Source: Polynucleobacter sp. (lineage in GTDB: Bacteria > Pseudomonadota > Gammaproteobacteria > Burkholderiales > Burkholderiaceae_D). From it: a stretch of 64,000 bases of DNA. Of the stretch, positions 6,686 to 11,294 are shown piece after piece (the stretch's first letter is position 1; each line of letters opens with the position of its first letter). The translations under genes were made by a program, and so were the position numbers. A model generated the notes under the pieces. The model did no database searches. It saw only the letters and a program-made list of their open reading frames with translations, and was not told the DNA's origin. The DNA lies in the NCBI GenBank assembly GCA_021737945.1, contig JAIPCX010000010.1, forward strand, positions 1-64,000, given 5' to 3'.

Positions 6686-8021
6686 TCAATCGCTTTCGCA
6701 GTTTTTAACAGGTTTGCGCAGCGGCCTGTTTTGGCGCACTTTTTTTCTGCTGACATTTTTAATCGCCACCAGCATGGCGGCATGGGTTGCTAGTTTTCGT
6801 ATCGTTGAACGTGTTCCGCGCGGAGAGCAAGTCGCTGCGCAAGTCGTCTCTATTGTCACCATCACACGCGCTGCCTTATTACACTCAGCGCCGGCATTGC
6901 GACGAGAGCTCTTGTTTGATCTGGCCAGTACACAAGGCATACGTGTCTATCCGCGCGAAGATGATGACGACACCGAGCCCATGCCAGACAGCGATTTAAT
7001 ACAAGTCATTGAAGATAACGTCCAAGCTCGCTTAGGTGAAGACACTCACTTCGCAGGCTATGTGAATGATATCCGCGGCTTTTGGGTCAGTTTCCGAATT
7101 GATGATGATGACTACTGGCTCATGCTGGATCGTGAGCGTGTAGAACAAGCCTCTGGCGTGCAATGGCTTAGCTGGGCTACCGTCACCTTGTTGTTATCGT
7201 TGGTCGGCGCAGCATTCATTAGCCGACTAATTAATCAACCGCTATCGCGCCTATCCACCGCTGCGCGCGCAGTGGCGCGTGGAGATACCCCTGCGGTCTT
7301 ACCCGAACTAGGTCCGACTGAAATTCGCGAAGCGAATCAAAGTTTCAATCAAATGGCGCACGATTTAAAACAAGTGGAATCAGATCGGGCTGTGATCTTA
7401 GCGGGTATATCGCATGATTTACGCACACCGATTTCGCGCATGCTGCTCGAAGTAGAAATGGCGGGGCTGTCGGAAGACGCACTAAAAGGCATGCAATCTG
7501 ATTTGGCACAGATGGAAACGATCATCGCGCAATTTTTAGACTATGCTCGTCCTGCAGATCCCGAGCGCTTTACCCCACATGATCTGGCGGCCTCACTCAA
7601 AAAAATTGCCGGTGAATATCAACGTCGATCCGATATCAACATAACGATCACTATTCCCGAAAAACTCAGCTTGCGCTGTAACGCTACTGAGATCGATCGA
7701 TTAGTACGTAACTTGATTGAGAATGCCAAGCGCTACGGCAAAACACCTGGCACATCGATCACGGATATTGATATCAATGCCTACCAAGAAGTAACAACGA
7801 TACGACTAGAAATCGCCGACCATGGAAGCGGCCTACCCGACGACCAGCTGAATCATGTACTGCGACCATTCACTCGTCTGGATGCAGCACGCAGCCAGGC
7901 AAACGGTGCGGGCTTGGGATTAGCGATTGTTGATCGCGTCGTGCAACGCCATCAAGGAAAGCTAGAAATAAAAAACCGCGAGGGTGGTGGCCTCGCGGTT
8001 CATATCATTCTGCCTACTTAA
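6669..8021 (+). CDS. envZ: EnvZ-like sensor histidine kinase
   Basis: A 450-residue inner-membrane kinase. Transmembrane helices lie at about 21-43 and 166-186, flanking a periplasmic sensor rich in acidic residues (DDDD runs near 98 and 145). HAMP follows at about 187-240, then the H-box GISHDLRTPISR with phospho-His249, the N-box NLIENAKRYG and glycine-rich ATP-lid motifs (ADHGSGLPD, GAGLGLAIV). It partners with the overlapping ompR. The last coding bases hold the terminator of the facing operon on the other strand, and the stop codon lies in a 14-bp tandem duplication. Confidence 0.92.
   Translation: MNKPANQSLSQFLTGLRSGLFWRTFFLLTFLIATSMAAWVASFRIVERVPRGEQVAAQVVSIVTITRAALLHSAPALRRELLFDLASTQGIRVYPREDDDDTEPMPDSDLIQVIEDNVQARLGEDTHFAGYVNDIRGFWVSFRIDDDDYWLMLDRERVEQASGVQWLSWATVTLLLSLVGAAFISRLINQPLSRLSTAARAVARGDTPAVLPELGPTEIREANQSFNQMAHDLKQVESDRAVILAGISHDLRTPISRMLLEVEMAGLSEDALKGMQSDLAQMETIIAQFLDYARPADPERFTPHDLAASLKKIAGEYQRRSDINITITIPEKLSLRCNATEIDRLVRNLIENAKRYGKTPGTSITDIDINAYQEVTTIRLEIADHGSGLPDDQLNHVLRPFTRLDAARSQANGAGLGLAIVDRVVQRHQGKLEIKNREGGGLAVHIILPT
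7969..8000 (-). terminator. Intrinsic terminator of the rubrerythrin operon, inside envZ
   Basis: A ten-base perfect stem (7974-7983 with 7991-8000), seven-base loop and six T residues on the minus strand form a textbook terminator for the leftward operon ending at 8065. It lies wholly within the last codons of envZ on the other strand. Confidence 0.78.
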
Positions 8022-8064: not shown

Positions 8065-8646
8065 TCATGAAAGATCTTTGAGCAGTGCTGCGAGAGTTTC
8101 TTGTGGAATTTCTTCCACATGCACAGGGTAATTCGGATGATCACAACCCATCATGATTTGTGCGCCACTCTTGAGCGCTGATTTCATTTCAGGGGTGAGC
8201 TCAAAGCGCACGAAGTGAACCGCTGATGTTTTTTCTTCTGTTTCGCGTTCAAGATCTTCATCAGCAATCGCATAGACGCGGCTCTGACCCTCGACCTGCA
8301 CAAACAAGCGGTCTTCAATACCGATCAACTTTGCCAGCGCCACTTTACGTTCTGCGACATTGCCATACTGAATCAGCATAGTCGCTTTAAAATTACTACC
8401 ATCTGGGCACAAAGGGTTGTAGGCATCTAACTCCGATTGAATGCCTTCATCTTCAAAAATCTTTTCAATGCGCAGCATTTCTTGAATTTGATAACGCAAA
8501 GTCAGCTCATCTTCAAACAGCAAGCTAACGTGGTTACCAAGATAAACGGTGCGATCTTTTTTATGCTCAATCACCTGTTTACGAAAATCGTTGCGCTGCT
8601 TCGAATAGGTTTCCAGCGACATTAAGCTTTCACGGGAAATAATCAT
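8065..8646 (-). CDS. DUF3501 family protein
   Basis: This 193-residue protein belongs to DUF3501, a family of unknown function almost always encoded after a rubrerythrin and a CCG-type Fe-S protein, as here. The recognisable stretch is YLGNHVSLLFEDELTLRYQIQEMLRIE (about 35-61); near the C-terminus is MMGCDHPNYPV. The ATG at 8646 has AAGGAG upstream and is 18 bp from the preceding stop, so it is the last gene of the operon. A role in peroxide or redox stress is inferred from neighbours only. Confidence 0.85.
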   Translation of the reverse strand: MIISRESLMSLETYSKQRNDFRKQVIEHKKDRTVYLGNHVSLLFEDELTLRYQIQEMLRIEKIFEDEGIQSELDAYNPLCPDGSNFKATMLIQYGNVAERKVALAKLIGIEDRLFVQVEGQSRVYAIADEDLERETEEKTSAVHFVRFELTPEMKSALKSGAQIMMGCDHPNYPVHVEEIPQETLAALLKDLS

Positions 8647-8664: not shown

Positions 8665-9999
8665 TCAAATAGCGTAGGCTTTGCGCAGCAGCGTTAATGG
8701 ATGTGCCATTTCGGCCTTTTTCAATCCATTCTCTTCCATGCCCTGCACAATATGGTGTCCGGCGAGCTGACAGTCGGATGAAATGTAATCCGGCTCATCG
8801 TTGGCCATAGCCTTAAATACAGGTTTACCAATTTTCATCGAATTAGCATGAAATTCTTTTTTCACGCCATAGGTACCTGCATGGCCAGAGCAACGCTCAA
8901 CGACATTTAGTTTCGTGTCGGGCACCAGTTGCAACATGTCGGCTGTTTTACGTCCCACATTTTGCACTCGTGAGTGACACGGTATGTGATACGAGATATG
9001 ACCTAATGAATGTTTGAAATCGATATTCAACAATCCATCACGGTTACGCGCCACAAAATACTCAAACGGATCCCACATCGCTTGTTTCACTAATTGTGTA
9101 TCTGCACAATCAGGGAACATGAGCGGCAACTCTTGTTTGTACATCAGAGTGCACGAAGGAATCGGGGTCAGGATGGCATAGCCTTCGCGTGCCAACTTAG
9201 CCAAATGAGGAATGTTGATCGCTTTTTTTTCTGCGACGCCTTCAAGGTCACCCTGCTCTAACTTAGGCATACCGCAGCATGCTTCCTTATCGACCATCAC
9301 ATAAGGAATTTTATTGTGGTCGAGGATCGCCAATAAATCATGGCCAATACCTGGCTCGTTGTAATTCACGTAGCAGGTCGAATAGATCGCAACCTTGCCG
9401 GGTGTGTTTTTACCTTCTTTAGCGGGATAGTCAGCCGATTTTTTCGCACCGGAGCGGAATTTGGTGCTCGCAAATTCAGGCAACCAGGCTTTTTTATCCA
9501 CACCTAATACATTTTCTAGCAGCCCGCGCGTTGCTTGCGCCTTGTTAACTGCATTCACAGCCTGAGTCACAATCGGTATACCTGCAAATTTACCGAGGCC
9601 GTCTGTATTAGAAAGAAATTTATCGCGCGCTGTTACATGACCTTGTTTATATTTCACGGCTTTGGCACGCAACATCAAATGAGGGAAATCAAGATTCCAT
9701 TCATGTGGCGGTGTGTAAGGACATTTCGTCATGTAGCAGAGATCGCACAGGTAGCATTGATCAACCACTTTCATGTAGTCTTTTTTGTCGACGCCATCGA
9801 CTTCCATCGTCTCGGACTCATCAACGAGATCGAACAACGTGGGGAACGACTGGCATAACGACACACATCGCCGACAACCATGACAAATATCGAACACGCG
9901 CTCAAGCTCAGTGTTCAAAGCGTCTTCGTCATAAAACTCTTTGGAGACCCAATCCAGCGGATGCCGAGTCGGTGCTTCCAGATTACCTTCACGTGCCAT
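8665..9999 (-). CDS. Fe-S oxidoreductase with CCG domain (heterodisulfide-reductase/GlpC-like)
   Basis: A 444-residue protein. Two 4Fe-4S motifs lie near the N-terminus: CHGCRRCVSLCQ and CYLCDLCYMTKCPY. The C-terminal half has cysteine-rich CCG-type segments (ACCGMPKLEQG and CSGHAGTYG), as in HdrB, GlpC and lactate-utilisation proteins. It probably relays electrons, perhaps to the rubrerythrin encoded upstream (inference). I chose the ATG at 9999 because homologues I recall start just before REGNLEAPTRHPLDW; the frame extends to 10071. It lies between rubrerythrin and DUF3501 in one operon, with paired hairpins in the upstream spacer. Confidence 0.85.
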   Translation of the reverse strand: MAREGNLEAPTRHPLDWVSKEFYDEDALNTELERVFDICHGCRRCVSLCQSFPTLFDLVDESETMEVDGVDKKDYMKVVDQCYLCDLCYMTKCPYTPPHEWNLDFPHLMLRAKAVKYKQGHVTARDKFLSNTDGLGKFAGIPIVTQAVNAVNKAQATRGLLENVLGVDKKAWLPEFASTKFRSGAKKSADYPAKEGKNTPGKVAIYSTCYVNYNEPGIGHDLLAILDHNKIPYVMVDKEACCGMPKLEQGDLEGVAEKKAINIPHLAKLAREGYAILTPIPSCTLMYKQELPLMFPDCADTQLVKQAMWDPFEYFVARNRDGLLNIDFKHSLGHISYHIPCHSRVQNVGRKTADMLQLVPDTKLNVVERCSGHAGTYGVKKEFHANSMKIGKPVFKAMANDEPDYISSDCQLAGHHIVQGMEENGLKKAEMAHPLTLLRKAYAI

Positions 10000-10030
10000 G
10001 GTGGAATCTCTCGAAGAAAAATGTGATGTT

Positions 10031-10098
10031 GTCAGGCTCTGCACTGCACGAGTGGGTTGTGCCTGACACAAACCTCTCTGGCAAGCAGAGAGGTTTGT
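10031..10098 (-). promoter_or_regulatory. Two adjacent hairpins in the rubrerythrin/Fe-S gene spacer
   Basis: A seven-base outer stem (10031-10037 GTCAGGC with 10061-10067 GCCTGAC) directly abuts a twelve-base perfect stem (10068-10079 with 10087-10098). On the coding (minus) strand no T-run follows, so termination is unlikely. mRNA processing or stabilisation that sets the ratio of the first gene to the later ones is more plausible. Confidence 0.5.
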
Positions 10099-10166
10099 TC
10101 AGTTTTTTAGTGCCTCATGCCCAAACTACAGAACATGACTCACTATCTAACAATGATGCTTATTAC

Positions 10167-10589
10167 TTAGTCGACCAGTGCGTCGAGCGCTTTTTGATAG
10201 CGATTGGCGTGTGAACGCTCAGCCTTAGCCAGCGTCTCAAACCAGTCAGCGATTTCATCAAAGCCTTCTTCACGCGCTGTTTTGGCCATGCCTGGGTACA
10301 TGTCAGTGTACTCATGCGTTTCGCCAGCAACAGCTGCCATCAGGTTTTGACGTGACGAACCGATAGGCATACCGGTTGCTGGATCACCCACTTGCTCGAG
10401 GTACTCGAGGTGACCGTGCGCATGACCTGTTTCGCCTTCTGCGGTCGAACGGAACAATGCTGCAACATCATTTTGGCCTTCAATGTCAGCCTTGTTCGCG
10501 AAATACAAATAACGACGGTTAGCCTGAGATTCGCCTGAGAAAGCGTCTTTCAGATTGGATTCCGTTTTGGAACCTTTCAGTTTGGACAT
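10167..10589 (-). CDS. Rubrerythrin-family diiron protein, rubredoxin domain absent
   Basis: A 140-residue four-helix protein with paired ExxH-type iron ligands: [17 protein letters not shown] (first helix), [28 protein letters not shown] and [13 protein letters not shown]. It reduces hydrogen peroxide or protects against oxidative damage in the cytoplasm. The C-terminal rubredoxin domain of classical rubrerythrin (CxxC pairs) is missing, so electrons must come from another protein, plausibly the Fe-S protein of the same operon. The start at 10589 has AAGGAG eight bases upstream; the longer frame is not supported. Confidence 0.9.
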
Positions 10590-10790
10590 AGGTATCTCCT
10601 TAGTAATTCGGTGGGGAAAACGCGGCGTCAAGACCATCTACTTGATAAAAAGCAAACGGGCGAGACTGAAAACCGACTGCGAAGTTTAGGCTTTCAGATC
10701 GCGATTGTGGCCCTGTAAGACCAAAATCTCAAATTGAGGTTCTTAATGTAGCCGATAGCCAAAATAAATCGAATTTATGTTATCGCTAGA

Positions 10791-10805
10791 TGAGAACTAT
10801 TATCA
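10791..10805 (-). promoter_or_regulatory. Fur-like box
   Basis: TGAGAACTATTATCA resembles the 7-1-7 Fur/PerR-type palindrome TGATAATnATTATCA, with the right half exact and two changes in the left half. It overlaps the ispF stop and lies about 200 bp upstream of the rubrerythrin start. Regulation by a Fur-family protein is inference. Confidence 0.28.
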
Positions 10806-11294
10806 TTTGATGTGAATAAGCACTATCGCTTGGGCGCCGATACCTTCTTGGCGCCCTTCCCAACCCAGACGTTCATTGGTTTTTGCCTTGATGTTTATCT
10901 GTTCAGGGGTCAAATCAAGGTCAGCAGAGATATGGCTGATCATTAAGGGTATGTGCGGGGCCATCTTGGGTGCCTCTGCAATAATCGTTGCATCAACATT
11001 GCCTATTTCATAACCCGCCTGTTTTACCCTGCTCGCCGCCTCCCTGAGCAAAATCCGGGAATCCTCACCTGAATATTTGGGGTCAGTATCTGGAAAAAGG
11101 CGCCCAATATCCCCCAGGGCTGCGGCACCTAGCAAGGCGTCGATAATTGCATGTATCAACACATCCGCATCCGAATGACCTAGCAAACCCAATCGGTGAG
11201 GAATTTTTACGCCACCGATAATGAGAGGCCTACCCGGTACCAATGCGTGGCAGTCATAGCCTTGACCAATGCGATAGGGTGGTGCTTTTTTCAT
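10803..11294 (-). CDS. ispF: 2-C-methyl-D-erythritol 2,4-cyclodiphosphate synthase
   Basis: A 163-residue enzyme of the MEP isoprenoid pathway. It converts the CDP-ME-2-phosphate intermediate into MEcPP with loss of CMP, acting as a zinc-dependent trimer. Family motifs are visible: [19 protein letters not shown] (metal ligands D and H), [18 protein letters not shown] (second His) and [15 protein letters not shown] near the C-terminus. Length is normal. Its start overlaps ispD by 4 bp, so the two are translationally coupled. Confidence 0.96.

What the first reader, a model, noticed from the sequence alone, without database searches (positions are those of the whole stretch)
10031..10098. Back-to-back hairpins in the rubrerythrin/Fe-S spacer
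Two perfect stems (7 and 12 bases) abut without a T-run on the coding strand. This suggests mRNA processing and stabilisation to give more rubrerythrin than Fe-S protein.
Basis: seen in the sequence. Interest (0 to 1): 0.35.

Follow-up and report, generated by a model that had tools for sequence, protein, structure and literature searches.

The report
Conserved hairpins after a rubrerythrin gene
Between a rubrerythrin gene and its iron-sulphur partner gene the messenger RNA can form back-to-back hairpins of the ordinary kind thought to let the first gene of an operon be expressed more than the next; a hairpin keeps this place in many related bacteria although its sequence changes.

Summary
The hairpins are real. 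On the coding (minus) strand, in the 167-nt rubrerythrin–RFO (Fe-S oxidoreductase) spacer, a perfect 13-bp stem (10098-10068) abuts an 8-bp stem with a 23-nt loop (10068-10030). They share one base; a weaker third hairpin (10145-10108) precedes them. H1 is far from chance; H2 alone is marginal. The element is single-copy and matches no Rfam family.

A hairpin at this place is conserved: 60 of 75 distinct spacers (window included) carry a strong one, against 16 of 79 other co-directional gaps in the relatives' loci. Within the window's genus it is 10 of 18. Covariation is strong in 14 hand-picked Comamonadaceae/Limnohabitans-type spacers, uninformative in the window's three-sequence set. Where rubrerythrin points away from RFO, it ends in a T-run terminator, 8 of 8 loci. 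Rubrerythrin's codon adaptation exceeds all 252 ORFs compared; RFO's is lower.

Best reading: a 3' boundary protecting rubrerythrin mRNA while transcription reads on into RFO–DUF3501; partial termination is the main rival. The mechanism is known; this is a new example.

The parts
10167..10589 (-). rubrerythrin gene (rbr), upstream gene
   Evidence: Pfam PF02915 Rubrerythrin 1.4e-28; start MSKLKG preceded by TAAGGAGAT ribosome-binding site; codon adaptation higher than all 252 background ORFs
10108..10145 (-). H0, third and weaker hairpin upstream of the reported pair
   Evidence: -15.7 kcal/mol, z -3.65, 0 of 200 shuffles
10068..10098 (-). H1, perfect 13-bp hairpin with 5-nt loop, no T-run immediately after
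   Evidence: pairing kept in the two nearest relatives but for one terminal pair in L036, with one A-U to G-C double change
10030..10068 (-). H2, 8-bp hairpin with 23-nt loop abutting H1 (shares base 10068)
   Evidence: 7 bp counted on A2, 95.2% of cells paired, no double change
10017..10024 (-). U-rich stretch between H2 and the RFO ribosome site; possible RNase E entry site (inference)
   Evidence: matches ACATT and ATTTT at 10024 and 10022 to RNWUU, a motif recalled and not from a call; the T-run is not kept in L036
8665..9999 (-). [quoted passage not shown]
   Evidence: Pfam CCG 4.7e-14 and Fer4_17 7.2e-05; weaker-looking ribosome site GAGAG
8065..8646 (-). DUF3501 gene, third gene, 18 nt after RFO
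   Evidence: Pfam PF12007 5.8e-76; coordinates

Best explanation
The hairpins are a 3' boundary element for rubrerythrin mRNA inside the rbr–RFO–DUF3501 operon. RNA polymerase mostly reads through them because they lack a good U-tract (inferred). The U-rich stretch and the less well translated RFO coding region downstream are cut by an endonuclease such as RNase E (inferred). 3'-to-5' exonucleases then stop at H2 and H1, leaving a stable rubrerythrin-only mRNA (inferred). The result is more rubrerythrin than RFO and DUF3501. Shown here: the structure, its placement and the conservation of a hairpin at that place, the missing clean U-tract, and the codon-usage and ribosome-site difference. Everything about RNA fate, co-transcription included, is inference.
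For: H1 and the spacer fold far better than shuffles. A strong hairpin lies in 60 of 75 rbr–RFO spacers, against 16 of 79 other co-directional gaps in the relatives' loci (Fisher p 7e-14) and 15 of 58 in the sampled part of the own genome. With a looser loop limit it is 68 of 75, against 88 of 1500 shuffled spacers; two abutting hairpins occur in 20 of 75, against 25 of 1500. Covariation in 14 Comamonadaceae/Limnohabitans-type spacers: 9 of 17 pairs with double changes, 0 of 500 shuffles as good on four of five measures and 14 of 500 on the fifth. Where rbr is divergent from RFO (8 loci), its 3' end carries a hairpin with a T-run in 8 of 8 and the RFO 5' side shows no comparable hairpin by eye, so the hairpin goes with the rbr 3' end. 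In the own genome, 7 of the 10 strong hairpins in convergent gaps have T-runs of six or more by eye, unlike H1. No sigma-70-like promoter was found in the spacer on the minus strand. RFO–DUF3501 gaps are 13-67 nt in 74 of the 80 kept by the script, rbr–RFO gaps 76-229 nt in 75 of 76. Codon adaptation: rbr 0.798, RFO 0.639, DUF3501 0.703. Documented precedent: PMC5927463 (passages).
Against: No RNA data. Within the window's own genus the evidence is mixed: 8 of the 18 genus spacers (window included) have no hairpin reaching the score of 22 with loops up to 12, several of them having longer-loop or interrupted ones instead; and the 3 alignable sequences show only 1 compensatory pair, a pattern that 167 of 500 shuffles reach. 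H2 alone is marginal (6 of 200 shuffles), and the minimum-energy fold of the whole spacer pairs the H2 region otherwise. 26 of the 60 strong hairpins, the window's included, have at least 5 T in 8 by a lenient count, so termination may be as good a reading. Lacking a U-tract is not rare: 7 of the 15 strong hairpins in co-directional gaps of the own genome have fewer than 5 T. The covariation group was hand-picked and its structure predicted from the same alignment. Related spacers are not independent counts.
Confidence: 0.5

Rival explanations
1. H1 is a weak intrinsic terminator: most transcripts end after rbr, a fraction reads into RFO–DUF3501, and the ratio is set by termination rather than decay.
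For: 26 of the 60 strong hairpins at this place have at least 5 T in 8, some of them clear T-runs (L069 and L076: hairpin followed by TTTTTTT). The window has 5 T of 8 if stem-base T's are counted. In rearranged loci the rbr end has a hairpin with a T-run, 8 of 8.
Against: No terminator-like site on the minus strand at H1 by the scan. The bases after the stem are GTCAGGCA, unlike the T-runs at 7 of 10 strong convergent-gap hairpins of the own genome (by eye). Only 3 of the 18 genus spacers (window, L034, L009) reach 5 T in 8.
Confidence: 0.31
2. H1 and H2 are the end of a separate rbr transcript, and RFO–DUF3501 has its own promoter inside the spacer.
For: In 8 loci RFO is separated from rbr and presumably has its own upstream signals.
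Against: No promoter-like site on the minus strand within 10000-10166 (consensus scan of one promoter type only). Hairpins fill much of 10145-10030, leaving 30 nt before the start codon.
Confidence: 0.08
3. The hairpin serves the other strand: H1 plus TCAGTTTTTT ends antisense transcripts before they cross rubrerythrin.
For: flags H1 as terminator-like on the + strand.
Against: The T-run is absent in both nearest relatives at the aligned place. The nearest + strand ORF of over 200 codons upstream ends at 8021, 2 kb away; a 169-codon + strand ORF at 9705-10214 runs across H1 itself.
Confidence: 0.04
4. Chance or a mobile repeat (REP- or MITE-like) with no role.
For: Other perfect 13- to 14-bp hairpin arms occur in the window; 15 of 58 co-directional gaps sampled have a strong hairpin.
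Against: Single copy in the genome; hairpin placement conserved in relatives with changing sequence.
Confidence: 0.04

Closest known systems
malE–malF type intergenic 3' protective structures and differential operon decay in E. coli (PMC5927463, passages seen)
   Same: Stable hairpin after the first gene of a co-directional pair, not followed by a clean uridine tract; upstream gene expected to be the abundant one; structure conserved in relatives; consecutive protective hairpins are reported there for menBCE.
   Different: No RNA ends or half-lives known here; these hairpins lie in the spacer, whereas the paper says such structures are often inside coding regions; different operon.
puf operon segmental mRNA stability in Rhodobacter (PMC6238624, passages and a reference title seen)
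   Same: Intercistronic hairpin region and RNase E sites between operon segments of different abundance.
   Different: Photosynthesis genes of another lineage; cleavage mapped there, not here.
Intrinsic (Rho-independent) terminators
   Same: Stable hairpin after a stop codon; relatives at the same place often have T-runs.
   Different: No T-run after the stem in the window on the coding strand.
RBR–RFO–DUF3501 gene cluster of aerobic-type rubrerythrins (PMC5114695, passages seen)
   Same: Same three gene families.
   Different: In the passages seen that paper describes the genes; the term 'intergenic' has 0 occurrences in its main text.

Membership tests
Intercistronic 3' protective hairpin (malE type, differential decay) | Energetically stable hairpin at the end of the upstream gene of a co-directional pair | tested here: met
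Intercistronic 3' protective hairpin (malE type, differential decay) | Not followed by a uridine tract | tested here: met
   H1 is followed by GTCAGGCA, H2 by ACATCACA; no minus-strand terminator-like site there; borderline if T's inside the stem base are counted (5 of 8)
Intercistronic 3' protective hairpin (malE type, differential decay) | Structure conserved in relatives | tested here: met
   60 of 75 against 16 of 79, but 10 of 18 in the genus; covariation in A4; A2 uninformative
Intercistronic 3' protective hairpin (malE type, differential decay) | Steady-state mRNA 3' end at the hairpin and longer half-life of the upstream segment | not testable with these tools
   needs Term-seq and rifampicin RNA-seq
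Intercistronic 3' protective hairpin (malE type, differential decay) | Both genes on one transcript | tested here: inconclusive
   No promoter-like site in the spacer, and rbr–RFO order on one strand in 93 of 114 loci (the same genome can appear twice), but 8 loci have rbr on the other strand
Intrinsic terminator | GC-containing stem followed directly by a T-rich tract on the coding strand | tested here: not met
   one search lists none on the minus strand at H1 or H2; relatives vary (26 of the 60 strong hairpins with at least 5 T in 8 by a lenient count)
REP/MITE-type repeat | Many dispersed copies in the genome | tested here: not met
   only this place
Known structured RNA family (Rfam 15) | Covariance-model match over the family's gathering score | tested here: not met
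   (9900-10850): only a sub-threshold sR44 match (17.2 bits against 45) inside rbr, taken as chance

The most novel reading that the evidence does not exclude
H1 and H2 form a two-state switch. In some genus members (L003, L005, L006, L008) the 3' arm of H1 can instead pair in a long H2, and in 8 of the 14 spacers of A4 the T-run after H1 lies in the 5' arm of H2. A signal such as translation, peroxide or iron could thus shift between release of rubrerythrin mRNA alone and read-through into RFO–DUF3501. In the window the two stems overlap by only one base, so the switch would be weakest there.
Probability: 0.07. Interest if true: 0.5.

Novelty: new member of a known kind. Interest (0 to 1): 0.22.

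Why it matters
It gives a testable reason why rubrerythrin should be made in excess over its two partner proteins, whose roles are unknown (DUF3501) or only predicted (RFO) (PMC5114695). Relatives offer natural variants from T-run terminators to hairpins without one at one locus, useful for asking how a terminator turns into a read-through stabiliser when a gene becomes the first of an operon, or the reverse.

Tried and rejected
A repeat family (own-genome DNA and pattern searches): single copy. Rfam: only a match at chance level. DNA-level search of 21 genomes of the genus: only G000 and G010 matched, so conservation was judged by position and folding instead. A conserved primary motif (GAGAGGGTT, then TTGnG and CnCAA): seen in a number of genus members but not in all, not pressed. 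Ribosomal-protein reference for codon usage failed because neither family tried was found in the assembly, so GroEL and the two ORFs read from L135 and L136 (taken, from recall of the family, as ATP synthase alpha and beta) were used; that reference set is small (3 genes). Alignment A1 used a misplaced 10-base stretch and was discarded. A3 was aligned and folded but its pairs were not counted. Background gene calls are crude ORFs of 100 codons or more; the window's RFO was called from an upstream TTG, which cut its spacer and lowered its hairpin score to 22.6. Literature searches (the last two gave 0 papers) listed no paper that by title or abstract start describes this spacer; passages only were seen of PMC5114695, PMC5927463 and PMC6238624, search listings of the rest.

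Full report
OBSERVATION. The genes lie on the minus strand: rubrerythrin (10167-10589), RFO Fe-S oxidoreductase (8665-9999) and DUF3501 (8065-8646). The 167-nt spacer between the first two holds H1 (13 bp, 5-nt loop, 10098-10068) and H2 (8 bp, 23-nt loop, 10068-10030), sharing one base. H1 is well beyond chance (z -6.4); H2 alone is marginal (6 of 200 shuffles as good); both together z -4.6. The whole spacer has z -4.3, but its minimum-energy fold keeps H1 and pairs the H2 region otherwise. H1 is flagged as terminator-like only on the other strand, and that T-run is not kept in the two nearest relatives.

HOW SPECIAL IN ITS OWN GENOME. In the window plus about 297 kb of the same genome, 15 of 58 co-directional gaps, 10 of 18 convergent gaps and 1 of 22 divergent gaps of 60-300 nt hold a hairpin of score 22 or more (crude ORF calls). 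By eye, 7 of the 10 convergent ones have T-runs of six or more. Of the 15 co-directional ones, 7 have fewer than 5 T in 8. So strong hairpins after genes are common in this genome, and one without a U-tract between co-directional genes is not rare.

RELATIVES. rbr was found in 40 of 56 genomes searched, own included (30 gave loci), and the RFO search kept its best 80 of 587 confirmed loci. Of 114 loci, 93 have rbr followed by RFO on the same strand, giving 76 distinct spacers with the window's own; 8 have rbr on the other strand and 13 lack an rbr match. By title the named loci are mostly Betaproteobacteria. Of the 76, 66 have folding z below -2 and 56 below -3. With one scoring rule, 60 of 75 spacers (L049 left out) hold a strong hairpin, against 16 of 79 other co-directional gaps in the relatives' loci (Fisher p 7e-14). 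Allowing loops up to 35, it is 68 of 75 against 88 of 1500 shuffles, and abutting pairs 20 of 75 against 25 of 1500. These counts include related species and are not independent events. Within the 18 genus spacers (window included), 10 reach the score of 22 and 8 do not under the short-loop rule.

COVARIATION. In 14 spacers picked by hand from Comamonadaceae/Limnohabitans-type loci, both hairpins covary: 9 of 17 pairs with double changes, 97.1% of cells paired, against 40.7-55.9% when slid, and 0 of 500 shuffles reach the observed value on four of five measures (14 of 500 on the fifth). That structure was predicted from the same alignment, which favours it. In the three alignable sequences nearest the window, pairing is kept (96.7%; 26.7-58.3% when slid) but with one double change only, which 167 of 500 shuffles reach: not informative.

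NATURAL COMPARISON. In 8 of 8 loci where rbr points away from RFO, rbr ends in a hairpin with a run of 5 or more T, and the RFO 5' region has no comparable hairpin, judged by eye. The hairpin therefore goes with the rbr 3' end; in the operon arrangement a hairpin is mostly kept while the U-tract is often weaker or missing. Among the 60 strong hairpins, 26 have at least 5 T in 8 when T's of the stem base are counted, the window's with exactly 5, so lineages differ.

EXPRESSION HINTS. With GroEL and two ORFs taken as ATP synthase alpha and beta as reference, rbr (0.798) exceeds all 252 background ORFs in codon adaptation; RFO is at the 90th percentile (0.639) and DUF3501 at the 98th (0.703). rbr and DUF3501 have AAGGAG ribosome sites, RFO a weaker-looking GAGAG. 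DUF3501 being better adapted than RFO means the ratio is not a simple fall along the operon. RFO–DUF3501 gaps are mostly 13-67 nt (74 of the 80 kept), rbr–RFO gaps 76-229 nt in 75 of 76.

MECHANISM. The E. [quoted passage not shown] By analogy H1 and H2 would stop 3' exonucleases after cleavage downstream, for example in the U-rich stretch 10024-10017 (inference; the T-run is not conserved in L036). Partial termination is the main rival and would give the same ratio. Nothing here separates the two.

VERDICT. Real, conserved in placement across relatives though not in every genus member, ordinary in kind. The gene cluster is known (PMC5114695, passages); searches listed no paper on this spacer. 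On re-checking, the genus count was mended from 7 to 8 of 18 without a strong short-loop hairpin and the own-genome U-tract comparison was softened; the odds moved from 0.52 to 0.50 for the best reading and from 0.30 to 0.31 for partial termination.

Noticed in passing
L090, L093, L092, L079, L094, L088, L083, L078: rbr is divergent from RFO in these loci (4 of 8 titled Polynucleobacter), with a T-run hairpin after rbr.
   Followed up: yes
10099-10108 +: On the + strand H1 is followed by TCAGTTTTTT; the T-run is not kept in L035 or L036.
   Followed up: partly
10108-10145: A third hairpin precedes the reported two; by eye L035 has a longer uninterrupted stem at the aligned place.
   Followed up: partly
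L049: 836-nt rbr–RFO spacer, far longer than the other 75 (76-229 nt).
   Followed up: no
10732-10704 -: Promoter-like site (TTGAGA, 17, CACAAT; 9 of 12) upstream of rubrerythrin; the region holds fewer such sites (3) than its shuffles (6.8).
   Followed up: no
G000 whole genome: No match to ribosomal S12 or L22 families although the assembly is listed as 100% complete; perhaps withheld or missing stretches.
   Followed up: no
L057, L080: MAG records titled Bordetella parapertussis whose rbr (76-77%) and RFO (72-74%) identities to the window resemble those of records titled Polynucleobacter (L066, L068, L070); the species title looks doubtful.
   Followed up: no
L099: MAG titled Candidatus Fonsibacter lacus whose rbr and RFO are 88% and 70% identical to the window's, like the betaproteobacterial records; title may be wrong.
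   Followed up: no
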